DNA from: Methanococcoides sp. EBM-47 | GTDB taxonomy: Archaea > Halobacteriota > Methanosarcinia > Methanosarcinales > Methanosarcinaceae | Assembly: GCA_001896725.1 (NCBI GenBank) | Contig: MPPA01000010.1 | Coordinates: 62,001-126,000 of the forward strand | Direction: 5' to 3' | DNA: 64,000 bases | In this document: positions 7,831 to 51,278 of the stretch, piece by piece | How positions within the stretch are numbered: the stretch's first letter is position 1 | Layout: each line of letters begins with the position of its first letter | Translations under genes and position numbers: made by a program | The notes under the pieces: generated by a model | Databases searched by the model: none | What the model was told of the DNA's origin: nothing | Seen by the model: only the letters and a program-made list of their open reading frames with translations

Positions 7831-7942
7831 TACTTTAAGTTGTTCACCAAGCCTCACAGGATTGGAGATGATTCCGCCACATCAGGCTGCGTATCACCGA
7901 TATAATATTTGCGCAAATCTCTTGCTTTTTTACTGAAAAGGA

Positions 7943-8032
7943 CGGGCCCGCCGCGATTCGAACACGAGTCAATGGGTATCTTCACCATGGGTTTCGAAGC
8001 CCATTAGGATATCCTGGCTACCCTACGAGCCC
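7943..8032 (-). tRNA. tRNA-Arg (UCG), probably with a 16-nt intron after position 37
   Basis: Read on the minus strand, the acceptor stem pairs GGGCTCG (8026-8032) with CGGGCCC (7944-7950). The discriminator base is G at 7943 and CCA is not encoded. The T loop is TTCGAAT. The anticodon loop begins CTTCGA, giving anticodon UCG. Without an intron, the 90-nt length and the stem ATGGG/CCCAT would force an 8-nt anticodon loop and a long variable arm. Removing 7978-7993 (AACCCATGGTGAAGAT) joins the anticodon stem to a second CCCAT (7972-7976). This yields an ordinary class I tRNA with a 7-nt loop and a 4-nt variable loop. Archaeal introns typically sit at 37/38, as here. Confidence 0.88.
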
Positions 8033-8061
8033 ACTATGGAACTTTGATTACGATCAGATTC

Positions 8062-19821: not shown

Positions 19822-20646
19822 TTAGCTGCTATTTAGTGTCAACGTAGAATTGGCAAGTCTTTTTTCATTGCCTAGCGGAGTTGTATAGTATCTCTGCTCG
19901 ATACCGTATAATATCTTTTTTAAATGATTCTCTGTGCTGACAACAAAAGCTTCGCCGTTAACCGGAACATCTTCACAATAAGAACGAATATATTGGAAAA
20001 TCTGTCTTTCGTCATCTTCCGTGAATTGGTTTAATATATCAATTGCTATTGCTATACGTTTTCGATTAGCTGTTTTCACATTGTCACTAGTAAATGTTCC
20101 AGCCAGAGAAATAAAATTGTAATTAAAAAAAGCATCTACTTCAGCTTGAGTAGCTTCCCGGTAAAGTTCCTCAATACCTCCGAACATTGATTTGATTCTG
20201 GCAATATTCTTAAAATAAAGAATATCGTCGTTTATATTATAAGCCGCATCGACATAACTATTGAGAATAATGATTGATTTATTAATTTCAAGTCTCGGTG
20301 CGCCTGAAATATCTAACAATTTTTTATTCAATAATCGAGTTGAAGACATTTTCTGAAACAGAAAAAAATCTCCTTGTTTACTGCATAAATAATTAATTTT
20401 AGAGTATTGTTGTCTGGTTATTTGGTTATAACGAGTGCTATCAAATGGCATCCCAATCAAATCATTCTCATAATTACGGCTTAAAAAATTGTCCAACTTA
20501 TACCATTCATCATCTTCAAGCGTATACGATGTTGTGTATGTATGAGTATCTGATAAGTCAGGTAAATCAAATAAATCTCTTTCATCAGACATGACTTTCA
20601 AGATTGTACCATTTCTACCGATTATTTTTGCTAATAAATGGTTCAT
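19822..20646 (-). CDS. kwaB: Kiwa anti-phage protein KwaB-like (DUF4868)
   Basis: A 274-residue soluble protein resembling DUF4868, the KwaB component of the Kiwa defence system. The supporting blocks are the IDLPDLSD-type early region, the central IIILNSYVDAAYNINDDILYFKNIARIKSMF and the C-terminal GEAFVVSTENHLKKILYGIEQRYY. Its ATG overlaps the kwaA stop by 4 nt, the standard kwaA-kwaB order. In Kiwa, membrane KwaA senses phage infection and KwaB binds DNA and blocks phage replication or late transcription. Base composition is lower in G+C than the hsd genes, suggesting separate acquisition. The call rests on remembered family patterns plus the pair arrangement. Confidence 0.78.
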   Translation of the reverse strand: MNHLLAKIIGRNGTILKVMSDERDLFDLPDLSDTHTYTTSYTLEDDEWYKLDNFLSRNYENDLIGMPFDSTRYNQITRQQYSKINYLCSKQGDFFLFQKMSSTRLLNKKLLDISGAPRLEINKSIIILNSYVDAAYNINDDILYFKNIARIKSMFGGIEELYREATQAEVDAFFNYNFISLAGTFTSDNVKTANRKRIAIAIDILNQFTEDDERQIFQYIRSYCEDVPVNGEAFVVSTENHLKKILYGIEQRYYTTPLGNEKRLANSTLTLNSS

Positions 20647-21194
20647 AGTACCTGCCTTCCCATATCCATAAATGTATAATTATTGATACGCTTTAAATTC
20701 TCAAATTCCGCATTTTTTGGCTCTTTAAGTTGTTTTTTTGTTATTACTAATATTTTAGTATTGTTATTAGTTTTTATATAATAAAAATTAAATCCAATCA
20801 GTAAAAAGATGGGATTAAAATACGATATTCTGGAATGATAAATAAAAATGCAGATTATTCCAAAAACATAAAGAAATACTTCTATGTTCGGTGCACTCAA
20901 AGCGACAAAAAAATAACCTAAATAACTCGGCAAGAATGCATCATTGGCAGGTTCAATGACAGATATTGACAACTTATCTATTGTATCTGTGTCTAAGAAG
21001 TTAGTACGATAAATGCTTTCCCGTGTAAGTAGATAAATAAATCCAAAATACAATAGGTAAGAAATTAAGGCTGGCAAATTTGAAAGGTAAGGATGCAACG
21101 GGTTTAGGACAACCTCTTCTTTAATGAGAAATACCAGCAAAGAAAGTAATAATGAGTTTAGTGTCAAGAAAAGTTTGAAAAGATGTACTATCAC
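20643..21194 (-). CDS. kwaA: Kiwa anti-phage membrane protein KwaA-like
   Basis: A 183-residue protein with four likely membrane helices (about residues 5-24, 38-57, 88-106 and 108-128), followed by a short cytoplasmic tail. The tail carries the motif NPIFLLIGFNFYYIKT and then ILVITKKQL, which matches my recollection of KwaA. It starts at GTG, whose G is the last base of the hsdS TAG stop (a 1-nt overlap), and ends by overlapping kwaB by 4 nt. That tight coupling means the Kiwa pair is translated as part of the type I operon. Confidence 0.75.
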   Translation of the reverse strand: MIVHLFKLFLTLNSLLLSLLVFLIKEEVVLNPLHPYLSNLPALISYLLYFGFIYLLTRESIYRTNFLDTDTIDKLSISVIEPANDAFLPSYLGYFFVALSAPNIEVFLYVFGIICIFIYHSRISYFNPIFLLIGFNFYYIKTNNNTKILVITKKQLKEPKNAEFENLKRINNYTFMDMGRQVL

Positions 21195-22342
21195 TATCCC
21201 ACATCCTCACATTCCACCCTCACTTCCCCACTCATCAATTTGGGCAGCAGCATATCCCGCATTTTTTCGAGGGTGCAGATTTGTTTATTATTTATAATCA
21301 GTTTTTCCATGAGAGGAGCCATTGATTTTGTCATTTCTTTCAGTTCATTATTTGATGGAACTAGAACCATTGCCACATCTAAATCTCCTCTTTTGATGTG
21401 CCCCATAGTAGTGGCATGGCTTAGTGAAATAGAAACAAATTCTTCTAAATGATATTTACACCATTGATAGTAAAACCATTTTGGATAATCCTCTGAAGTA
21501 ACTTTGAATAGATGTTGATTCAAAATACACTTTTCACCATCCCATATTTTAACCATTAATGAAGCCGACCAAGAAAAAATAACATCTCCATTTTCTACGA
21601 GATATTCGGGTTTGACTTTTGTTGTAGCATAGTCAGAGTCTTGTGAAATACCATTACGCAGCTCTTTGATTTTCAAGACAGGTAATTTATTTATTTCATT
21701 TAGAGGTGGATATTTTTGACAAGCCAATCCATTTAAAAAATCAGCTATACTTGATAACGACTTTTCTTCCCACTCCTCATCCGCCTCCTCCACGAACCAC
21801 TGCCTGAACAGGGTTTCCGCCATCGCTTCTAGGGTCTTGTTCTGGCGGTGGAGCAGGTCGATCTTGTCGTCGAGGCTGGAAAGCACAGAGGCGATGGCGC
21901 GCTGTTCTTCGATATCTGATGGAACAAGCCATTTTGTATTTTTCATGAAACTCCAGTCAGCCCTTGGCATTTTTGTGCCAGAGGAACTAGAATAAGCCAA
22001 ATTAATAAATTCTGGATTTGCAAACAAATAAAATAAAAATGTTAAATCAGTCCCATTACGAGCACCTATAACCCAAATATCTGTAGAACAGATTCCACTA
22101 AATCGAGGTAGTACAACTTTTCGAAAATAAGGGCGCAATTTTCCGAAAAGAAAGTTGTTTTCACGGAAACGATACTTGTTACTTGTAACAATATCAGAAT
22201 GACCAATTCCATTTAGTCTTAATTTGCCTTCTTCAATGTGTTCCAAACCAATATATGGACATTTTTCATCACCAACTTTCCAACTTTCTTTATAAACAAT
22301 TGCTAACTTTAAAAGAGATTTTTCCTTCCACTCCCCCGTCAC
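21194..22342 (-). CDS. hsdS: Type I restriction-modification specificity subunit
   Basis: A 382-residue HsdS with two target-recognition domains. The first spans about residues 1-130; the conserved coiled-coil spacer follows (EEQRAIASVLSSLDDKIDLL, then a FRQWFVE segment). The second TRD spans about 195-340, and the closing coiled coil is near 345-375 (MRDMLLPKLMSGEVRV). The protein sets the bipartite DNA sequence recognised by the complex. Its ATG overlaps the stop of the preceding ORF6N-like fragment by 4 nt and its stop overlaps kwaA by 1 nt. It has normal length for the family and no visible frameshift. Confidence 0.93.
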   Translation of the reverse strand: MTGEWKEKSLLKLAIVYKESWKVGDEKCPYIGLEHIEEGKLRLNGIGHSDIVTSNKYRFRENNFLFGKLRPYFRKVVLPRFSGICSTDIWVIGARNGTDLTFLFYLFANPEFINLAYSSSSGTKMPRADWSFMKNTKWLVPSDIEEQRAIASVLSSLDDKIDLLHRQNKTLEAMAETLFRQWFVEEADEEWEEKSLSSIADFLNGLACQKYPPLNEINKLPVLKIKELRNGISQDSDYATTKVKPEYLVENGDVIFSWSASLMVKIWDGEKCILNQHLFKVTSEDYPKWFYYQWCKYHLEEFVSISLSHATTMGHIKRGDLDVAMVLVPSNNELKEMTKSMAPLMEKLIINNKQICTLEKMRDMLLPKLMSGEVRVECEDVG

Positions 22343-31489: not shown

Positions 31490-33424
31490 ATGAGCTATAG
31501 TCTTGGTATAGATGCAGGAGGGACTTATACTGATGCTGTTCTTTTAAGAGACGAAGATAATATGATAGTCCAGACGAGCAAAGCGCTGACAAGTTATCCA
31601 GACCCGCTGGATGGGATCAAGCGGGCGATGGACGGTCTGGACCCTGCACACCTCAAAAACGTTAAAATTGTATCAGTATCCACAACACTTTCCACAAACA
31701 GTATACTGGAAGGTACTGGTTTTCCAGTTGCTATGATACTTATTGGGAACTACGATATCAGGCAAGAGCTTCCAACAGAGCATTTTATACAGATACGCGG
31801 CGGTCATGATCACAATGGTATTGAAACTAACAGTTTGGACCTTGATTCCATCAGAGAATTTGCCATGGAAGTAAAAAACAAGGTTTCAGCTTTTGCAATA
31901 TCCTCTTATTTCAGTATCCGGAACAATGAACATGAACTTATGGCCAAGGACCTTATCATGGAACTCACAGGTCTTCCTGTGGTCTGCAGCTATGAACTGT
32001 CCCAGGACCTTGGAGCTTTTGAAAGGGCAGTTACAGCCGTCCTTAACGCACAATTGATACCTGTGACCGAAAGGTTCATGAAGAACGTTGAAACGGAAAT
32101 ATCATCAAGAGGGATAAATGCAAAGGTCTTCATGCTAAAATGTGACGGGTCTGTCATAGGCATACAGAGCGCACTCAAAAAACCGATCGAGTCCATCTTT
32201 TCAGGACCAGCGGGAAGTCTTGTAGGAGCTTCGTTCCTAATCAAAAAGGACACATGTGCCGTTATAGATGTGGGAGGCACAAGCACAGATATTTCAGTTA
32301 TCTATAATGGTGTTCCCAATATGAGCGATTCCGGTGCCGTTGTAGGGGGATGGAAGACCAGGGTTAAGGCATTAAGGATGGAAACATCTGCAATGGGGGG
32401 TGACAGCCATGTATGGGTGAAAGGTAAAAATATTAACATAGGCCCCAGAAGGGTTATTCCCCTGTGCAGGGCCGCTGAGCTTTACCCTGATTTCCTTGAG
32501 CAGCTCAGAATAAATCCAATGCCCACTAAAATGCAATTAGGTATCAACTATCAGCCAACAAAGTTCTTCCTGAGGACAGATTATGAGGTAATGAATGTCA
32601 GTGAAGAGGAAAAAAAGATACTTGATGCCGTGAAAAAACATCCCACTTCGATCACAGAGGTCTTCAACCGGATCAACAAATATCCTGCCAGTAGTGTTCT
32701 GGACAGCCTTATTCAAAAAAGGCTCTTGCAACCTATTGGCTTCACGCTCACGGACGCCTTGCATGTACTTGGAGATTACACGGAAAGGAATGTCGAAGCT
32801 GCTAATACGGGTGCCGATCTGCTCGGTCCATTGGTGGACATGGACAGGTATGAATTTTCGAGACATATTAAGACGGAATTTGCAAAGAACATGGCATGCG
32901 ATCTTACATCATTCTTCCTTGAAGGAGTGGATAAAAAGGAAATAAGAAAGATATTTGATATCCGATCACCTACAAAGTTCAAGATAGAGGTTCCTGTTGT
33001 ATTGATTGGCGGACCTACAGCTGCTTTTGTGGAGAGCATGACGGATATACTGGATGCGGAAATAATACTTCCGGAACATTCCAGCGTAGGGAACGCTGCC
33101 GGTGCACTGGCTGCAAAAGGTATCCGAAGATTCGAGGTGTTGATAAGACCAGCATCAATGGCTGCTCCTGATTGGGAATTCCTTGTATTTTCCGAACATG
33201 GGAAAAGTAATTTCCATGATTATCAGGAGGCGCTGGATTATGCCATCAGCCTTGGAGAAAACACTGTCCGCAATTATATGGAAGATGCTGGGCTTGGATC
33301 TGATCACATCCGAATAGACGTCAATAAAGAAGAGATCGTTCCAGCGGGATGGAAAACGCCAATGGAAACAAAAATTGTTGTACTAGGTGTCGGCAACAGA
33401 AAAACTGAGCAGGATTGTTGCTAA
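31490..33424 (+). CDS. Hydantoinase/oxoprolinase family protein
   Basis: A 644-residue protein of the hydantoinase A/oxoprolinase family. The N-terminal ASKHA-type nucleotide-binding segment LGIDAGGTYTDAVLL starts at residue 5. SVSTTLSTNSILEGTG and a second phosphate-binding motif, AVIDVGGTSTDISVIYNG, follow (the latter near residue 265). A winged-helix-like segment lies near 390-430. The start is the ATG at 31490, with AAGGAG 9 nt upstream. Members hydrolyse ATP to open cyclic amides such as 5-oxoproline, but archaeal homologues stand alone without the B subunit, as here, and may do other chemistry. Confidence 0.88.
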   Translation: MSYSLGIDAGGTYTDAVLLRDEDNMIVQTSKALTSYPDPLDGIKRAMDGLDPAHLKNVKIVSVSTTLSTNSILEGTGFPVAMILIGNYDIRQELPTEHFIQIRGGHDHNGIETNSLDLDSIREFAMEVKNKVSAFAISSYFSIRNNEHELMAKDLIMELTGLPVVCSYELSQDLGAFERAVTAVLNAQLIPVTERFMKNVETEISSRGINAKVFMLKCDGSVIGIQSALKKPIESIFSGPAGSLVGASFLIKKDTCAVIDVGGTSTDISVIYNGVPNMSDSGAVVGGWKTRVKALRMETSAMGGDSHVWVKGKNINIGPRRVIPLCRAAELYPDFLEQLRINPMPTKMQLGINYQPTKFFLRTDYEVMNVSEEEKKILDAVKKHPTSITEVFNRINKYPASSVLDSLIQKRLLQPIGFTLTDALHVLGDYTERNVEAANTGADLLGPLVDMDRYEFSRHIKTEFAKNMACDLTSFFLEGVDKKEIRKIFDIRSPTKFKIEVPVVLIGGPTAAFVESMTDILDAEIILPEHSSVGNAAGALAAKGIRRFEVLIRPASMAAPDWEFLVFSEHGKSNFHDYQEALDYAISLGENTVRNYMEDAGLGSDHIRIDVNKEEIVPAGWKTPMETKIVVLGVGNRKTEQDCC

Positions 33425-33904: not shown

Positions 33905-33912
33905 TATATATA
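33905..33912 (+). promoter_or_regulatory. TATA box of the small-RNA candidate
   Basis: TATATATA directly preceded by the purine-rich GAGAAAG, as in archaeal BRE-TATA promoters. It predicts initiation around 33932-33937, exactly where the hairpin begins. Confidence 0.55.
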
Positions 33913-33935
33913 ACATTAATTCATATGGAAATCCA

Positions 33936-34020
33936 GTGAGCGGGTACAACATTTTTAACCCCACTCCCACACTAACCCCCACTCCCCAACCCGCTCACAT
34001 AATAATTAGGGGGTTGTTTA
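33936..34020 (+). ncRNA. Candidate small RNA: hairpin with long C-rich loop
   Basis: A perfect 10-bp stem (GTGAGCGGGT at 33936-33945, ACCCGCTCAC at 33989-33998) closes a 43-nt loop. The loop is almost free of G and has several C runs (ACCCCACTCCCAC, AACCCCCACTCCCC). A GGGGGTT at 34010-34016 can pair alternatively with AACCCCC in the loop. A consensus TATA box lies 24-31 bp upstream. No ORF overlaps. Methanosarcina small RNAs such as sRNA41 and sRNA162 use exposed pyrimidine-rich loops to cover ribosome binding sites, and this loop is complementary in style to GGAGG-type sites. The 3' end is a guess. Confidence 0.5.
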
Positions 34021-34131: not shown

Positions 34132-34491
34132 TCACCTTTCGCGTGCTTCTCCGTACTCATCTATTATGGACTCTTTACACAGACCTACTCCGTGCCTGTG
34201 AGCTGCCCTTGTGATCATATGAGCTGCTATTGGAGCAGTAAGCAGTAAGAACAGACCCACAGCAATGGCTTTGATGCCTATAGGTGCAAAACCTGCTCTC
34301 ATGAGAATGCTCAACATCACACCGAAGGCTCCAAGTGTACCTATCTTGGCAGTTGTATGTAAACGGTTGTACACATCCGGTAAGCGTATAAGGCCTAACA
34401 TGCCAAGGAATACGAAGATCAGACCTATCAACAGCACTATATCGCTCAGGATATTCATGATCATATTAATGAACACGCTTATTCCGCTCAC
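34132..34491 (-). CDS. mrpG: Mrp-type Na+/H+ antiporter subunit G
   Basis: A 119-residue membrane subunit with three helices. The family core LIGLIFVFLGMLGLIRLPDVYNRLHTTAKIGTLGAFGVML covers residues about 20-62. It is the last gene of the seven-gene operon, and its ATG overlaps the mrpF stop by 4 nt. AAGGTG...CACCTT around a T run at 34119-34137 may form the operon terminator. The Mrp complex exchanges cytoplasmic Na+ for external H+, helping methanogens balance the two gradients. Confidence 0.93.
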   Translation of the reverse strand: MSGISVFINMIMNILSDIVLLIGLIFVFLGMLGLIRLPDVYNRLHTTAKIGTLGAFGVMLSILMRAGFAPIGIKAIAVGLFLLLTAPIAAHMITRAAHRHGVGLCKESIIDEYGEARER

Positions 34492-43351: not shown

Positions 43352-44761
43352 TTACTCTGCTTTCGGAGGCCAGTTCTTTTCCATCCAGCCCGGAAGCCTA
43401 CCGGAATCAGCTGGTCCGATCATTACCCTTGATCCTGTCTCATCCTCCACATCACCTTGCAGACGTGCTGCAAGTCCCGGAAGGACTATGGTATTGTGGG
43501 TTGTATCGTTCTTAAGATTGAAACCTGAGTCCTCTATGCCTTTCTTGATCTTTGCTGCCGTGAGCTGACCACCGGCCACTGCAGCCTCCACACCAATACC
43601 ATCGGTATCTATCGCCCAGAGGTAGCAATCTATCTTGCTGGAAGCAAGATCGCTCTCCACTGTATAGTAGGTGAGGGCAAAGTTGGTCGTGACCAGCACA
43701 GGTGAATCCCTGTCCGGATTACCTATCTTATACATAGCGGGCTGTACGCTCACAGGCTTTCTGGGATCAGTATAGATCGTATCCCTGATGTGTAACTGTG
43801 GAAGCAGAGCATATGGCTCGATGCTATGCATTATCATTACATCGCCATACTTTATAGTGAATATGGATGCAATAACCGTTTCCCAATATGAGGCACTGAC
43901 AGCGTCATCATGCACCATCCACGCGGTTAGAGGGACTGCCATTATAGGATAGGCAATATCCTTATCCCCTTCAACGCCAGCCCTTCTGATCTTCAGGAAA
44001 TTGGTGAAGGTCTTCTTCAGGTCCTTGCCTGCAGGGAACGTGCCAGGATCCAGAACAAGTTTCTCAGTGCCCATACTTGCAAAGGTCATTGCAAGGGATT
44101 TGAGCGTGTCCAGATCATCAGGTGAGAACAGTGTAACAGGTACATCGTATTCAATTGCAATGTCTGCCACTTGCTGCCAGTTATCCTTGTTTGCAGCGTA
44201 TAGGAGTGGATTTTTATCCTTTGCCACATCAAGACCAGCCCTCAGCACTTCTGGATCGAAGGAGCAGAGAATAAGGGGCATATCAGTGGTTTCAATAACT
44301 TTTTTTACAGCATCTGCAAACTTTTTAGGGTCATTGGAAATGCACCTGACAGCTACCATGTCCAGTTTAAGGAAGTCACCTACATAGAACTTCTTAAAGT
44401 CCTGGATCTTCCTGACCCTCTCTGTAAGTTCATTTTCGGGCATGGTGTCCCAGACATCATAAGCAAATGCAGTGGGATTGAAGAAAGTAAGTCTGTGACG
44501 GTACAACACATCGTCTCCACCAATCTTCACCGCCTTTTCACCCACACCAACCACCACTTCACGGACCTCTGGGGCGAGAAGTACATGCAGTTCCCTGAGT
44601 TTTTTGCTGAACTTCTCTTCAAGCATAGGTGTGCAATCTGTGAGCTTCTTGGATCGGTCGATCAGACGTGCAGCAAAGGCCATACATGTTTGTTCACCGC
44701 ACTTGCCACAGTTAGTACCCGGCAGATATTTATATGCTTCAAGCGGACTGTTGATCTTCAT
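43352..44761 (-). CDS. cdhE: ACDS corrinoid iron-sulfur protein, gamma subunit
   Basis: The 469-residue large subunit of the corrinoid/iron-sulfur methyl carrier. An N-terminal four-cysteine domain, NCGKCGEQTCMAFAARL (residues 17-33) with a further Cys near 42, binds the low-potential 4Fe-4S cluster. A TIM-barrel follows, and a C-terminal corrinoid domain begins near 320. It passes the methyl group from tetrahydrosarcinapterin to the A cluster of CdhC. AGGTGTG precedes its ATG; cdhD ends 3 nt upstream. It is the last gene of the operon. Confidence 0.96.
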   Translation of the reverse strand: MKINSPLEAYKYLPGTNCGKCGEQTCMAFAARLIDRSKKLTDCTPMLEEKFSKKLRELHVLLAPEVREVVVGVGEKAVKIGGDDVLYRHRLTFFNPTAFAYDVWDTMPENELTERVRKIQDFKKFYVGDFLKLDMVAVRCISNDPKKFADAVKKVIETTDMPLILCSFDPEVLRAGLDVAKDKNPLLYAANKDNWQQVADIAIEYDVPVTLFSPDDLDTLKSLAMTFASMGTEKLVLDPGTFPAGKDLKKTFTNFLKIRRAGVEGDKDIAYPIMAVPLTAWMVHDDAVSASYWETVIASIFTIKYGDVMIMHSIEPYALLPQLHIRDTIYTDPRKPVSVQPAMYKIGNPDRDSPVLVTTNFALTYYTVESDLASSKIDCYLWAIDTDGIGVEAAVAGGQLTAAKIKKGIEDSGFNLKNDTTHNTIVLPGLAARLQGDVEDETGSRVMIGPADSGRLPGWMEKNWPPKAE

Positions 44762-44764
44762 GTT

Positions 44765-46102
44765 TCACACCTCTGCTCCTATCCAATTGGTAATGTCAAC
44801 TGTTTTCGATTCAATTGAACCATAAAGGGTCTGGGTGATCTCCTTGAGCACCTGCACAGAAGCAGGGTGCATCATCATGAACATATCATTGCCTGCAAGG
44901 GACAACGCCAGGCCGGTGATGATCTCCCATATGGGACCACGATATTCTCTGGGGCCCCATTCAGAGTCCTGCGTCTGTGGTGATGAAACCATCCATGCCT
45001 CGCGAGCACCCCATGCGTTGGTGGTGCCTGAGGACATCGGGAACGTCAGTTCATCATCGCCCATCAGACCTGCGAGCCTTATACGTTCCATGTTACTGTA
45101 AGCATAATCCAGACCATAACCAAGAGCTGCAGTGGTCGGATCCATTATGATACTGTCCCTTGGGACATTACACTGCTTCATGAGTTTTCTGTTAAGCTCT
45201 TTCTGAGCATTGATCTCAAGCTGGGTCCAGGAAAGTACCACATGTCCGTTGTTTATAGCTGCCTTGGCTATTCTCTCATAGTCCAGGTTCAGACTTGCGG
45301 AAGCGAGAAGTACACGCTCACCTGCAGCAGCCTCTGCAGCTTTCTCCAGCACTTCAGGATCCTTCTGTGGGTTGCCTGAACCACCAATAACTATAGGCAC
45401 GTCCACAGCCTGCAACACATCTTCAACTACTTTGGCTGCATCACGGGCAGAAGTATCCTTGATAAGAGGATCGGTAGATATCAGGTGTATGGTCACCATA
45501 TCAGCATTAAATTTCTTGACGACTTTTTTTGCCCACTCTGCTGGATCGTTCATGACATCATCATAGTTGGATTTCACCGCCTTGGCCATACCAATGGGCA
45601 TATCGAATACATCCATGGTGACGTAGTTGCGGTGAGGCATTTCAGCATCAAAGTAATATGGCAGGGCATTTTCCCCTCCCAGGGTAATAGTGTTCTTCCT
45701 AGAGCCGCCATTTGAGGATGTGGCACCCAGGGTCACTTCCTGTATAGGGTTGTTCCAGTTCGTTGCTGAGGCCACTTCGAACTTTGCAGCCAGAAGTTCC
45801 TGCACTCTGGCCTTTGTTGCAGCCATCTCGCCCACAGGCGAAAGGGCACCTGCAGTCCCCATTCCCAAAGCCTGGGAGAACAACTGGTCCACGGGGTATC
45901 CCAGTATCCTGCCTATGTTGGCCATGTGCAGGGAGATATGTGAGATCTCCTGTCCCAGTGCATAGGCCAGTGCAGGGTTAAGCCCTCCACCGCCAGTTAT
46001 ATTTAATTCGATATCACCCTCGATGGTCACACCTTCCAGGGCTTCTATATCAAAATCCTTGAACAGGTTGGTGATATCAGTTAGTTTGGTCTTCTTTGTC
46101 AT
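44765..46102 (-). CDS. cdhD: ACDS corrinoid iron-sulfur protein, delta subunit
   Basis: The 445-residue small subunit of the corrinoid protein, which binds the methyl-pterin partner and the corrinoid together with CdhE. Recognisable blocks are the [17 protein letters not shown]-terminus and [20 protein letters not shown] near 265. The central TIM-barrel ends in [15 protein letters not shown]. The frame opens at TTG 46123, but the ATG at 46102 follows GGTGG and begins MTKKTKL as in known CdhD, so I use it. It lies between the CooC-type gene and cdhE. Confidence 0.95.
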
Positions 46103-46130
46103 ATGTATTCCACCATAAATCAAGAGAGCA

Positions 46131-46883
46131 TCATAAATTTAATTTCCGGGAGATATTCTCTACTTCCTTGACGGCAGGTGAGTCGTCTGGAAGTTCCATA
46201 AGCGACTGTCCTGTAAGGTCCCTTTCTACTATCATTTCATCCATTGGGACCATACCTATAAGCTCCAGTCCCATTTCTGTAGCATTCTTCACGATCGTTT
46301 CACGTGTACTGTCAGTGACCTTGTTAGCGATCACGTATATATGGTTCACATCGGTATTCAGTTTTCCAACCAATTCACGGATACGCTCAGCAGTTCCCAT
46401 TCCTCTGCGGGACCCGTCTGTTACTACAATAAGATCATCCACCTGTTTGAATATCTTCCTGCTGAAATGTTCAAGTCCGGCTTCAGTATCGATTATAAGG
46501 ACATCATAGTTGCCTACGAGTTTGTTCATTATACCCCGCAGCAGGTTATTGACATAACAATAACATCCGGAACCCTCGGGCCTGCCCATGACCAGCAGGT
46601 CATATCCGGACATTTCCTCCAGCACTTCGTATAGCTTGGATTCCAGAATGGACTGCTTGTTGATATCGGGAGGAAGATTGTCACGCTCTTCATACATGAA
46701 CTCTTTCACATCACCAATTGTCCTGTGCACCTCACATCCCAGCGTTTCCGGAAGATTTGTATCAGGGTCAGCATCTACTGCTAGAACTACTTTGTTACTT
46801 CTGATGAGGTGCCGTATGAGCAAGGTGGTAATGGCTGTCTTGCCAGTACCTCCTTTCCCGGTCACTGCTATTATTCTGGTCAC
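46131..46883 (-). CDS. cooC: CooC/AcsF-type nickel-insertion ATPase
   Basis: A 250-residue MinD/Mrp-like P-loop ATPase. The deviant Walker [15 protein letters not shown] is at residues 9-22, the [14 protein letters not shown] switch near 37, and a CYCYVNN metal-site-like segment near 110 (within [10 protein letters not shown]). The [10 protein letters not shown] Walker B region follows. CooC proteins insert nickel into CO dehydrogenase or acetyl-CoA synthase clusters, and its place between cdhC and cdhD fits that job. It uses a GTG start, and AGAGGCC serves as a weak ribosome site. Confidence 0.92.
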
Positions 46884-46895
46884 AATAGGCCTCTA

Positions 46896-48323
46896 TTATT
46901 CGATCTTCTTTATGATTATCTTATCTACTGTCACTTTTGCGTTCTTAAGCACTATCTTCACACCACTGGTGTCTGAGCCACCCATCATTGGTATTGAAGG
47001 CATAAAGCCTGCTGGCATCTGCTGCGGGATATATTGCATGGGCTGCTGGTACTGTGCCTGAGGGGGTTGGCTAGCTACTACTTCCTCTTCTGCAGGAGCC
47101 TCTTCCTCTTCGACCACCCATCTCTTGACCACAGGATGATCTTTCTCTTTTAGGAACTTCTTCAAATCTTCAACATCTTTTACTTCTTCGTCAGTTGCTA
47201 CCTTATCCTTTAGCTCATCAGGAATGCTGTCCAGCACTTTCTGTTTCAGCATGTTTGGCATCCATACGACACGTTCCCATCCACCATCAGCCCTGATAAA
47301 CTTCGGTGAACGGAAATAATTAACGCCGATCCCCAGGAAACCCACGACCTGTTTACCTCCACCTGTCTGTCCTGCCATGGTGGAGAACTGGAGCCCGTTG
47401 GGTGCAGTTCCTGCAAAGTCCCTGTCCACCCAGCCAATACCGTCAACTTCAGGTATATAGAAACCTACTACCTCGAAGCAGCCGCATGATGTGTGAGGAT
47501 ATTCAAAGAAAGAATGCAATTTGAGCCTGTCGTATTCGCCACTTGATAAACGCTTTGCATGTTCGTTCACACCGGAATACTCACCTGATGCCTCATCCAG
47601 CAGTTCTCCTTTTTCTATGGCGAACTGCGGACCTTCCGGGTCCACCTTAGCTGCTGCCCTTCCGTCGAACCAGTTGATGGCCCCACACAGAGATATTCTG
47701 TCAGGCGTGATGACACAGACATTTGTCGGAGCAAAGGACTGACACAGGGTACAGCCATAGAAGGTGTCCACATCTTCATCATGGAGACCTTTTGTCCTTT
47801 CGTCCCTTGCCTTATAGACGGCTCTGGCATTCTCTATTTCTCTTTCGATCTCGGCTTGATCTGTGATATACACGGTTTCTACTTTCTCAATGAAAGAAAG
47901 TTCGTTCCTGAATAGCATCATAATGGCCTTTGCGATCTGTTCAAAGGAAGTTAGACCTTTTTTTATGGCTTCCTTGCTCACCCTTAACCATATATCGTCT
48001 CTCTGATTAAGGTGCATAAGGCCCTGGATATAGTTCTGGAACTCATGATTCCTTCTTTCTACAATGGATTCCAGGTCTGTTTCCACCAGTTCACCTGCTA
48101 TCTTGTAGATCATAGCTATAGGATACCTGGAACCTTCAGCCATGTCTGCAAGGTCAGGACCGATAAGTGTGAACTTGCCATCTTCCACATCGTTCATATC
48201 CGCTGCCCTTACCAGTTCAAAACCAATGGATTTCGGGCCAGCAAGTTCAACATACATATTGTCTTTTCTGATCCTTTCTCCTTCGAACATAGGGGATATC
48301 TCAAAAGGGAATTCATCTGCCAT
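46896..48323 (-). CDS. cdhC: ACDS acetyl-CoA synthase, beta subunit
   Basis: A 475-residue catalytic subunit that condenses the methyl group, CO and CoA. The A-cluster cysteines are in FYGCTLCQSFAPTNVC (near residues 188-203) and RISLCGA (near 212). A fourth Cys-containing stretch, YPHTSCGCFEVVGFY, follows near 285. The archaeal short form lacks the N-terminal CODH-binding domain of bacterial AcsB, as expected. The C-terminal 70 residues are a Glu/Ala then Gln/Pro/Met-rich linker with a short beta tail. GGAGAAA is 8 nt before the ATG. Confidence 0.96.
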   Translation of the reverse strand: MADEFPFEISPMFEGERIRKDNMYVELAGPKSIGFELVRAADMNDVEDGKFTLIGPDLADMAEGSRYPIAMIYKIAGELVETDLESIVERRNHEFQNYIQGLMHLNQRDDIWLRVSKEAIKKGLTSFEQIAKAIMMLFRNELSFIEKVETVYITDQAEIEREIENARAVYKARDERTKGLHDEDVDTFYGCTLCQSFAPTNVCVITPDRISLCGAINWFDGRAAAKVDPEGPQFAIEKGELLDEASGEYSGVNEHAKRLSSGEYDRLKLHSFFEYPHTSCGCFEVVGFYIPEVDGIGWVDRDFAGTAPNGLQFSTMAGQTGGGKQVVGFLGIGVNYFRSPKFIRADGGWERVVWMPNMLKQKVLDSIPDELKDKVATDEEVKDVEDLKKFLKEKDHPVVKRWVVEEEEAPAEEEVVASQPPQAQYQQPMQYIPQQMPAGFMPSIPMMGGSDTSGVKIVLKNAKVTVDKIIIKKIE

Positions 48324-48354
48324 TTTAATTTCTCCGCGATTTCTTGATCATGAT

Positions 48355-48864
48355 TTAAAGGTTAGATATGAGCTCATCAAGTGCTGCCATATGGTCTTCG
48401 GTTTTCAGGTTACCGAAAGACATATCTGCATTTTGCAAATAATGTCTGTCTATAGCCAGTGTTCTTATGTTAGTGAAGTTCTTGAGACCTGACAGTACCT
48501 GGTTCACATAGTATTTTTTGTGCCCGAGGAAGATCACCAGATCGTAGGACCCCTGTCCATCTAATCCCTTCCAGTCCTTGTCACATAGATAAGTAGCAAG
48601 GAAATGGATATTGATATACTTTGCATTTACATCGTGACCTTTTAAACCCTGCATGGAATGACCGGTTGCAGCTATCTGCACACCCTTTTTACCAAGTGCT
48701 ATGGCCTTGGGGATCAAACCACTATCCAAGGCATCCGCACCTATTACTAAAAGTGGTCTCTTGGCTTTGGAAATAAGTTTTGCAGCCACTAAAGGCTGCA
48801 CCGGCTTTGCACTTCTGGATCCCCAGGTAGTATATATCGTCGTGTTCTTTGTAGTGTCCACCAT
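48355..48864 (-). CDS. cdhB: ACDS CO dehydrogenase, epsilon subunit
   Basis: The 169-residue epsilon subunit, with a Rossmann-like fold of DHS/NAD-binding type (RPLLVIGADALDSGLIP near residue 35). It binds the CdhA dimer and may help electron transfer to FAD or ferredoxin. The ATG at 48864 overlaps the last base of the cdhA TGA; AAGGAAGGTGTG upstream supports it over the earlier in-frame GTG. It is followed by cdhC after 31 bp. Confidence 0.94.
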   Translation of the reverse strand: MVDTTKNTTIYTTWGSRSAKPVQPLVAAKLISKAKRPLLVIGADALDSGLIPKAIALGKKGVQIAATGHSMQGLKGHDVNAKYINIHFLATYLCDKDWKGLDGQGSYDLVIFLGHKKYYVNQVLSGLKNFTNIRTLAIDRHYLQNADMSFGNLKTEDHMAALDELISNL

Positions 48865-51278
48865 CAACACACACCTTCCTTACAGAGCCTTTTGACATTT
48901 GTAGGCTGTGCAGACACATCGAGCTTCATGGTCGGACCAGAAATGATCTTCTTTTTCTTCCAGTCGATCTGCCATCCATGTTCCTGTTCCAGTATCTTCA
49001 GCAGTTCCTCACGCTTCGCAAGAGGAAGATCGGTCTCTGTCCTTACGAACTTATACCAGTCCTCAGGCAAATGACCCAGGTATTTCTGGCTCAGTTCGAT
49101 ATAATGGGTAAGCTTGATCATACGTCCCATATTGTTGTCACTTGGCCTGATACAGTTCTTAGCGATCATGGGCATGAGCTCCTCCATTGTCTCTGCGGTT
49201 GTAAGCAGGAACTCCGGTGAGGCTGGAATGGGCATTTCTTCTCCGTTACGAGCATCATAGACCTTCCAGTCCTCTTCGTTGTAGGGTTTACCTATCAGTG
49301 CTCGTCTGTATTTGGAACCATGTGGTCCCACTATGACTGGGATCCCTAGCCTGTTACATCCCGTACCAATGGCCGCAGCCTTCTGGGAATACGCACCCCA
49401 CGCCACACCTACTGCACCGATACGGTTCATGATATAATCCGCTATTTCCTCAAAGTTACCTGTGATATTCCTCTGGGCGAATATGGCAGCTACCTTAATG
49501 GCAGTACCTGTTATATGTGAGTTGGAAACACAGGAGCCTACGTTTATGAGATTGCCTGCCAGGAACTTGGCCGGATATTTCTCATAGAGGGTCTGACCTT
49601 CCTCGTCCTTGTACATGCCCAGGTCCATGGCAGAACATCCTGACATTACAACTATGTAATTTCTCTGTAGCATCTCGTTTGCTACAGTGTACAGGTCCTT
49701 GGTACCTTCGGGATAGTTGGAGCATCCGACCATTGCCACGATACCCGGTGTAGTGCCCATTACAAGGTTGACACCTTCCTCACGGATCTCAGGATCACTG
49801 ATCTGTCCCCTTCCGGCACGCATCTTGCCCTTCTCCTCACGGATAACTTTTTGTGCAGCCTTCTCGATCACATTGAGGATCGGAATATCCTTTGGACATA
49901 CCGGGTCACAACGTCCGCAAGCTATGCAATGGTCATGGAGGTACTCAAATAAGGTGATATCTCCCTCAGCAGCTGCTACCATAGCGTTCATTATAGGCAG
50001 GTTGTTAGGGCATACCAGTTCACAGGCACCGCACTGTACACATGCAGAGGTCAGTTTTTTCAGTTCTTCATCAGAAGGCAGTGACTTGATACCTTTTGCA
50101 TCTCTTATGGGTGCCATTTTCATAGCAAGACGGGGAGCTACTTCTCCAAGTAGATCGAAGTCCAATATAAGGGCCCCAGGTTCCTTCCCACTGGAAAGGT
50201 CATCGATTATCTGGTCAGCACTATCGTTTGACCTGTTGGGCAAACCATACATGATCTTTTCGTTGGTTGTGATCACTGGTATGAACAGCTTCTTTGCCTC
50301 ATCAAGAACATCAGGTCTGACACATTGCTCGTCCACAACAATAACATCCGGAGCAGCAGAACGTATCATCTTAAGTTCTTTTGCCATGGAACCTATCACT
50401 TTGGCTCGTGGAAGACTACGGTCATCTGTCTTGTAACGTGTCATGTCGATAGCTGTACAGCACAGTCCTGCAAACTCTATCTTATCGTTAAGTCCCTGCT
50501 CTTCCATATAGTCCATAATATAGGTTACACCTGCAACATTATGTCCTATGACCAGCAATACAGGTTTTGTAGAATCTATACACCCCATCCCTATTTCTGC
50601 AAGAGGGGCCTCAGGATCGGATTTGGGCATACCAAGACATGATATCTGGGCAATATCAGAAACTTCCATGCCCACATGGTCAAGCATCCCACCGTGCAGT
50701 GCCTTGGATTCAAAATCAAGAGCTGAACCTTCCTGACCGGCGTGGATCGTAGAAAGAAGCTGCATCAGTTGTTCCTCAACATATGCAACGACCTCTTCCA
50801 GGTCGCCCAGAGTTCTTGGCACAATGCCTGTGACCAGCTGAGTGTTTGGAGCAAACAGATTTGAAGGTCCTACATCAATAGGATGATCCCTACCATGCAA
50901 TCCTATCAGATGATGCAGCAGGTGACGTCCATGAGCTGAGTGCGCTGCTGCACCGGTGATGACCCTCAAAAGGAACTCTCTTGACTGCTGTGCAGCCAGA
51001 TCTATACCGCATGCTCCTTCTTTGTTCCCACCAAGATCACACTTGCCATATGTGCAGTAACAACACTGATCACAAACAGGAGTGTATATTGGCTGATAGC
51101 GGGACAGCAATTTATAGTCCCAGTCCCTTAGGCCGGAAACACCGGGTTTTGGTGTAGGTCCAGTTTCAATACCTTCCTCTTCAGCTTTTATTTCGATGGC
51201 ACCAACTATGTTGTTGATCGTGATCTGAACGTTCTCCAGATCCTCAAGGGAGAACTTGCCTGTTGATATTTTAGTCAT
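48864..51278 (-). CDS. cdhA: ACDS CO dehydrogenase, alpha subunit
   Basis: The 804-residue Ni-Fe CO dehydrogenase of the ACDS complex, first gene of the operon. The N-terminal cysteines in [23 protein letters not shown] (about residues 69-91) hold clusters B and D; I cite [13 protein letters not shown] as the core. Two ferredoxin-type 4Fe-4S motifs, [12 protein letters not shown] near 415 and [12 protein letters not shown] near 455, are specific to archaeal CdhA. C-cluster residues follow near 550 (SGCSAMDLG), 580 (NVGSCVSNS) and 620. The ribosome site is AAGGAGGG. It releases CO2 and electrons from acetyl-CoA cleavage, or makes CO in the reverse direction. Confidence 0.97.

What the first reader, a model, noticed from the sequence alone, without database searches (positions are those of the whole stretch)
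33905..34020. Candidate small RNA with a 43-nt C-rich loop
Seen: a consensus TATA box at 33905-33912, then at the predicted start a perfect 10-bp stem closing a nearly G-free loop with several C runs, in a 700-bp gene-free interval. A downstream GGGGGTT can pair with the loop, giving a possible switch between two folds. Known: Methanosarcina mazei sRNA41 and sRNA162 act by pairing to ribosome binding sites, and sRNA41 regulates ACDS mRNAs. Inference: this RNA could mask purine-rich ribosome sites; the ACDS operon 10 kb away is an attractive target.
Basis: partly seen in the sequence, partly recalled or inferred. Interest (0 to 1): 0.65.

Follow-up and report, generated by a model that had tools for sequence, protein, structure and literature searches.

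The report
Conserved small RNA in methane archaea
The spot marks one copy of an undescribed small-RNA family, found in nearly every examined genome of one archaeal class that makes or eats methane, in which a clamp of changeable sequence holds open a nearly unchanging cytosine-rich loop; what the loop binds is still unknown.

Summary
At 33936-33998 a perfect 10-bp stem closes a 43-nt loop without G, 31 bp after the start of a TATA box. A covariance model finds the element in 224 of 237 genomes of the class (149 of 150 high-quality ones), 1-15 copies each, and in no listed genome outside it. The stem covaries (6 of 10 pairs with two-sided changes). In several paralogs the stem sequence is quite different while the loop (U-run, then CUAACCCCCACUCCCCA) stays. 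A TATA box lies at the matching distance in 84 of 102 copies on this strand and 4 of 102 on the other. No Rfam family matches. I read it as a multi-copy trans-acting sRNA with paired ends and a C-rich pairing loop. The target is unproven: neither ribosome sites in general nor the ACDS operon are preferred over composition-shuffled loops. The proposed two-fold switch is predicted in 2 of 27 orthologs. Identity with M. mazei sRNA41 could not be checked, because its paper is not held.

The parts
33905..33912 (+). TATA box of the RNA gene; starts 31 bp before the first stem base
   Evidence: same distance (-36..-28) in 84 of 102 family members on this strand, 4 of 102 on the other
33936..33998 (+). 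Conserved RNA element: closing stem plus loop; predicted 5' end at or within a few nt of 33936 (inferred from TATA spacing); 3' end unknown
   Evidence: R1 match 33934-34000, 83.3 bits; exact hairpin z -5.81
33936..33945 (+). 5' arm of the closing stem (GUGAGCGGGU)
   Evidence: covariation
33952..33956 (+). U-run in the 5' half of the loop
   Evidence: T4+ run in 62 of 64 distinct loops, before the first C-run in 61 of 64
33959..33968 (+). First C-rich tract (CCCCACUCCC), present in this ortholog group
33972..33988 (+). Core of the loop, CUAACCCCCACUCCCCA; CCCCCACTCCCC exact in 49 of 64 distinct loops
33989..33998 (+). 3' arm of the closing stem (ACCCGCUCAC)
   Evidence: covariation
34009..34015 (+). 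G-tract after the stem that can pair with the loop; GGG within 25 nt in 24 of 28 of this ortholog group, 5 of 75 other members

Best explanation
SHOWN by sequence: the locus is one gene of a multi-copy, standalone, non-coding RNA family confined, as far as searched, to one archaeal class. Nearly every gene has its own TATA promoter; the RNA is predicted to begin at the stem. Its ends form a 7-15 bp clamp whose sequence is free to change, and the clamp holds out a 27-71 nt, almost G-free loop made of a U-run followed by two or more C-tracts with the core CUAACCCCCACUCCCCA. INFERRED: it is a trans-acting regulatory RNA. The paired ends protect it from decay and keep the loop single-stranded, and the C-tract core pairs with a limited set of G-rich mRNA sites to block or alter translation or stability, with the U-run as a possible Sm-like protein site. 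Sibling copies with the same loop and different promoters let several signals feed one target set.
For: Family and range. Negative controls: 32 bacterial loci picked by the same regular expression reach at most 26.6 bits, against 31.8-86.3 bits for the 54 sense-strand matches. Covariation. Stem replaced while loop kept: L217, L232, L242, L281, L283, L286, L292. Strand: TATA 84 of 102 against 4 of 102; inner-pair G-U 11 against A-C 1, p 0.006. Loop: 64 distinct loops, 2.1% G and 43.6% C. Not coding: the core lies in all three frames relative to the stem (38/27/25). No protein neighbour is shared across the syntenic groups, which points to action in trans. Ribosome-site masking by sRNA162, whose unpaired linker is needed, is shown in M. 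mazei (PMC3510493, passages read).
Against: No target found. Average pairing with 385 gene starts is weaker than for shuffled loops (z about +1.9); conserved strong pairs 21/8/2 against shuffled means 21.6/7.4/2.7 in 99 ortholog pairs. No near-perfect antisense site (12-mer, at most 1 mismatch) was seen to recur across 8 genomes outside the family itself; 11 of the loci were read. A loop nearly unchanged over a whole class is more than mRNA pairing alone usually demands. No transcript data.
Confidence: 0.5

Rival explanations
1. Protein-binding RNA (sponge or scaffold): the U-run and repeated C-tracts are binding sites for an RNA-binding protein particular to this class, and copy number sets how much protein is titrated.
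For: Core unchanged over a class while C-tract number varies between clades; no preference for mRNA sites over shuffles; 1-15 copies per genome; free stem with fixed loop fits a displayed ligand.
Against: No candidate protein identified; M. mazei Lsm-like proteins had no effect on sRNA162 binding in published gel shifts (PMC3510493 passages), though that is another RNA.
Confidence: 0.3
2. It is the counterpart of M. mazei sRNA41 and represses ACDS translation by masking several ribosome sites of the operon.
For: sRNA41 represses ACDS by masking ribosome sites (review PMC5867862, passage read). The RNA lies 13-24 kb from cdhC in the window, G160, G178 and G022.
Against: ACDS starts rank 12, 35, 62, 207, 221, 258 of 385; of 18 starts in three genomes only cooC in G160 (0 of 100 shuffles) and, weakly, G178 (0.07) exceed shuffles; tblastn found no ACDS gene in the 400 kb of G005 around its copy.
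Confidence: 0.1
3. It is a cis-acting leader or 3'UTR element of neighbouring mRNAs.
For: In one syntenic group it lies 56-192 nt upstream of a same-strand NADH-oxidase-like gene, and in Methanoperedens 47-258 nt upstream of rtcA-like genes.
Against: Neighbours differ between groups, and the window copy and the RFC-large-subunit group face convergent genes; most copies have their own TATA box.
Confidence: 0.05
4. The DNA, or a transcript of the other strand, is the functional form: a G-quadruplex-forming strand.
For: The antisense of the loop is an array of G-tracts.
Against: TATA 84 of 102 on the C-rich strand against 4 of 102 on the other; inner-stem G-U against A-C 11 to 1 on that strand; a G-quadruplex needs no covarying stem.
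Confidence: 0.04
5. Chance hairpin without function.
For: The 101-nt fold is no better than shuffles.
Against: 224 of 237 genomes, covariation, promoter spacing.
Confidence: 0.01

Closest known systems
Methanosarcina mazei sRNA162 (with sRNA171) (PMC3510493)
   Same: Intergenic archaeal sRNA with an unpaired linker that pairs with a ribosome site; same order of archaea; two copies in its genome.
   Different: 191 nt with three stem-loops and a 39-nt linker, homologs reported only in M. acetivorans and M. barkeri; here one closing stem and a C-rich loop, found across a class.
Methanosarcina mazei sRNA41 (Buddeweg et al. 2018; known here only through reviews, PMC5867862 and PMC9170634)
   Same: Methanosarcina sRNA thought to mask ribosome sites.
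   Different: Sequence not available to me; ACDS preference not seen for this family. It may or may not be a member.
C-rich-loop sRNAs of Firmicutes (Staphylococcus RsaA and relatives, seen in the abstract of PMC3961350; Listeria LhrC siblings, recalled)
   Same: C-rich unpaired loop, sibling copies, conserved seed-like C-tract.
   Different: Bacterial, other sequence and structure; their C-tracts pair with Shine-Dalgarno sequences, a preference not detected here.
Paired-termini antisense RNA design (title seen in a reference list; content recalled)
   Same: Ends of the RNA paired into a long clamp that displays a single-stranded loop.
   Different: A laboratory construct; here the layout is natural and the clamp sequence is exchangeable.
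Nine conserved cold-induced sRNAs of Methanolobus psychrophilus (PMC5378194)
   Same: Multi-copy conserved intergenic sRNAs in a genus that carries this family.
   Different: Sequences are only in a supplement I could not read; the genomes of genus g5 (Methanolobus, inferred) have 2-4 matches to this family, not nine.

Membership tests
trans-encoded archaeal sRNA | intergenic gene with its own promoter | tested here: met
trans-encoded archaeal sRNA | conserved structure, not protein coding | tested here: met
trans-encoded archaeal sRNA | detected transcript | not testable with these tools
   no RNA data
trans-encoded archaeal sRNA | pairs with an mRNA elsewhere in the genome | tested here: inconclusive
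   no excess over shuffled loops; only 439,291 bases and 385 genes tested
Rfam 15 families | score at or above a family's gathering cut-off | tested here: not met
M. mazei sRNA162 | three stem-loops and 39-nt linker, range limited to three Methanosarcina species | tested here: not met
   one stem, class-wide range against PMC3510493 passages
M. mazei sRNA41 | sequence and structure of sRNA41 | not testable with these tools
   paper not held; 2009 transcriptome paper not held
M. mazei sRNA41 | preferential pairing with ACDS ribosome sites | tested here: not met
   says nothing of sRNA41 itself
C-rich-loop sRNA (RsaA/LhrC-like mode) | C-rich single-stranded loop in sibling copies | tested here: met
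C-rich-loop sRNA (RsaA/LhrC-like mode) | sequence-specific pairing with Shine-Dalgarno regions | tested here: inconclusive
   ribosome zone favoured (-6.8 against about -4.2 kcal/mol upstream) but shuffled loops do better

The most novel reading that the evidence does not exclude
A class-wide core regulator of methane-cycling archaea: a sibling RNA family carried by methanogens and by ANME-2/Methanoperedens methane oxidisers, in which an exchangeable clamp displays one nearly invariant U-run/C-tract loop to a single conserved partner (a class-specific RNA-binding protein or a shared mRNA set), so that copy number and promoters, not sequence, are what evolves. It may be the first regulatory sRNA system conserved over a whole archaeal class.
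Probability: 0.35. Interest if true: 0.85.

Novelty: new variant of a known kind. Interest (0 to 1): 0.68.

Why it matters
Only 21% of M. mazei trans-encoded sRNAs were reported conserved even within three Methanosarcina species (review PMC3432209, passage read). An RNA family present in 149 of 150 high-quality genomes of the class, including anaerobic methane oxidisers, would be unusually broad for a regulatory RNA in these organisms and points to a core function. The fixed loop with a swappable clamp makes the functional element obvious, and Methanosarcina genetics makes its role directly testable.

Tried and rejected
Ribosome-site targeting in general and in ortholog pairs: no excess over shuffles. 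ACDS: not preferred. Pairing with 16S rRNA: best -17.1 kcal/mol against shuffled mean -18.9; own rRNA is absent from the assembly, so the 16S of G160 was used. Near-perfect antisense targets in 8 genomes: apart from the family's own copies only scattered single sites (for example L244, L238). Viral contigs: one pattern 0 hits, a second 2 hits without the family's stem. Peptide: rejected. Fold switch: 2 of 27 orthologs. L215 (different stem, weak TATA) was noted but not counted as a clear variant. An alignment with length variants (A3) was discarded for misplaced stems: I dropped L085, L078, L217, L232 and L186, so A4 counts 29 of those 34. One search used brackets one column off and was redone. 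Of 118 collected copies 13 were dropped as duplicates; the 105 left are not independent (several per genome, and some sites come from two collections).

Full report
What is there. Between a gene ending at 33424 and mnhG, which starts at 34491 on the other strand and ends at 34132, lies a gene-free interval of about 707 bp.

Is it more than chance? The single-sequence fold of 101 nt is no better than shuffles (z -0.04); the exact hairpin is (z -5.81, 0 of 200). The decisive test is comparative. A DNA search found a match in 35 of 40 genomes, the own one included. A covariance model built from 19 copies (R1) finds it in 174 of 185 genomes of the order and 116 of 117 high-quality ones, in 224 of 237 of the class and 149 of 150 high-quality ones, and in 53 of 294 genomes sampled over the phylum, all 53 of them in the same class; of the 241 misses only 20 are listed, none in the class. 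The genomes that lack it include all six of genus g11 and both of g10 and g28, mostly small genomes. Matches per genome run from 1 to 15, highest in family f5; named loci show that the range includes Methanolobus, Methanohalophilus, Methanococcoides, Methanosarcina, ANME-2 and Methanoperedens. The own genome has three clear copies, two of them a tandem pair on contig C7, and a fourth, diverged one (E 0.05) that keeps the TATA box, stem and a C-rich loop but not the core.

Controls. The same regular expression also picked up bacterial loci by chance. R1 gives at most 26.6 bits on 32 such loci, while 49 of 50 sources in the other set (archaeal loci, the window and its second locus, plus L133, labelled Desulfuromonadales) match; L130, labelled Thermoplasmata, has none. 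Of the 56 matches in that call two are the antisense reading of sites already counted; the remaining 54 score 31.8 bits or more.

Anatomy. On 29 diverse copies (A4) 94.5% of cells pair, 6 of 10 pairs show two-sided changes (25 cells), and 0 of 500 shuffles reach the covariation score or the percentage paired; sliding the partner by 1-3 columns drops pairing to 24-48%. Beyond ordinary covariation, paralogs exist in which the stem is quite different and the loop is kept: GAGGCATGTGG (L217), GCTGACGGGTT (L232), TTGCACGGGTGG (L242), ATGGGCATCCGGG (L281, two copies), TGGGCATCTGG (L283), TGATGGGCGGT (L286), ATTGTTGGGCAGGAA (L292). So the clamp is structural and the loop is the working part. Among 64 distinct loops G is 2.1% and C 43.6%; 62 hold a run of four or more T, 61 have that run before the first C-run, 61 have at least two C-runs, and 49 hold CCCCCACTCCCC exactly.

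Strand and promoter. A TATA-like box starts 28-36 bp before the stem in 84 of 102 copies on this strand; the mirror test on the other strand gives 4 of 102. In the inner stem pairs, wobble pairs that are G-U on this strand outnumber those that would be G-U on the other strand 11 to 1 (p 0.006). The RNA therefore probably starts at the stem. A run of T5 or more follows within 100 nt in 44 of 102 copies (27 of 104 upstream), so the 3' end is not predicted with confidence. The core lies in all three frames relative to the stem, so a peptide is excluded as the common function.

Neighbourhood. Orthologous sets sit beside mnhG (this one, Methanomethylovorans and Methanolobus), beside the replication factor C large subunit gene, upstream of NADH-oxidase-like and rtcA-like genes, or beside others; no protein neighbour is common to all (product names beyond mnhG are my reading of the sequences, not a family search). 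That points to action in trans.

What it does. The best reading is a trans-acting sRNA with paired ends and a C-rich pairing loop. I tested the obvious target class. Pairing is stronger at ribosome sites (about -6.8 kcal/mol near -10) than upstream of them (-3.8 to -4.5), but loops with the same bases in shuffled order pair even better at every position (z about +1.9 at the site), so the order of the bases is not tuned to Shine-Dalgarno sites. In 99 ortholog pairs with G005, conserved strong hits (21, 8 and 2 at three thresholds) match the shuffled expectation (21.6, 7.4, 2.7). ACDS starts rank 12, 35, 62, 207, 221 and 258 of 385; in G160, G178 and G022, 18 starts were tested and only cooC in G160 (and weakly G178) beat shuffles. 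Pairing with 16S rRNA is not better than chance. These tests would miss a small, specific target set; they do count against a general ribosome-site blocker and against ACDS as a preferred target. A protein partner is the main rival, favoured by the loop's invariance.

The switch. The G-tract itself is kept in 24 of 28 of this ortholog group against 5 of 75 other members, of which 26 carry a C-tract there instead. Its role is open; a pseudoknot with the loop would be possible and was not computed.

Known or new. No Rfam 15 family matches. The core string occurs in 6 held papers, none of them on archaea by title. Searches for Methanosarcina, Methanolobus, Methanoperedens and multicopy or C-rich sRNAs listed no description of such a family; the listings are short and many subscription papers are not held. 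Papers were read only in passages: PMC5867862, PMC5378194, PMC11456600, PMC9170634, PMC3510493, PMC3432209. The sRNA41 paper and the 2009 M. mazei transcriptome are not held, so single members may well have been sequenced already. As a family I rate it a new variant of a known kind.

Noticed in passing
L002:1304-1362 (G000 contig C7, one of the tandem pair) and L070, L101, L104, L111, L114: In the set beside the replication factor C gene, six copies carry a CATNATNATGATGA-like near-palindrome just upstream of the TATA box, a candidate operator, so this sibling may be separately regulated; most also have a conserved UACUCCACU right after the stem.
   Followed up: partly
G000:C51:434555-434633 (minus strand): Fourth, diverged copy in the own genome: TATA box, stem GCGAACGGGU/ACCCGUUCGC, C-rich loop without the core (E 0.05).
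   Followed up: partly
L281 and L283 (G016, G160): Variant subfamily with stem ATGGGCATCCGGG and, in L281, a small inner hairpin GGTCATTTCATGACC at the 5' side of the loop.
   Followed up: no
window 43352-51278 and 33936-33998: The RNA and the ACDS operon are within 13-24 kb of each other in G000, G160, G178 and G022, but no ACDS gene was found in the 400 kb around the G005 copy.
   Followed up: partly
window 20643-22342: The two strongest predicted loop-RBS pairings (-30.4 and -29.6 kcal/mol) fall at adjoining genes; one looks like a type I restriction specificity subunit (my reading of its start). Shuffle tests give no reason to trust them.
   Followed up: no
G000:C51:102630-103139 and C51:436352-436858: A flavodoxin-like and a rubrerythrin-like gene (my reading) share a GGGGAGAT ribosome site, kept in G005, that could pair with CUCCCC of the loop.
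   Followed up: no
L133: Contig labelled Desulfuromonadales carries a 44-bit copy of the family resembling ANME-2 copies; probably a mis-binned archaeal contig.
   Followed up: no
window 7940-8033: ARAGORN reports a tRNA of unknown type with a four-base anticodon (tcga); Rfam does not confirm it.
   Followed up: no
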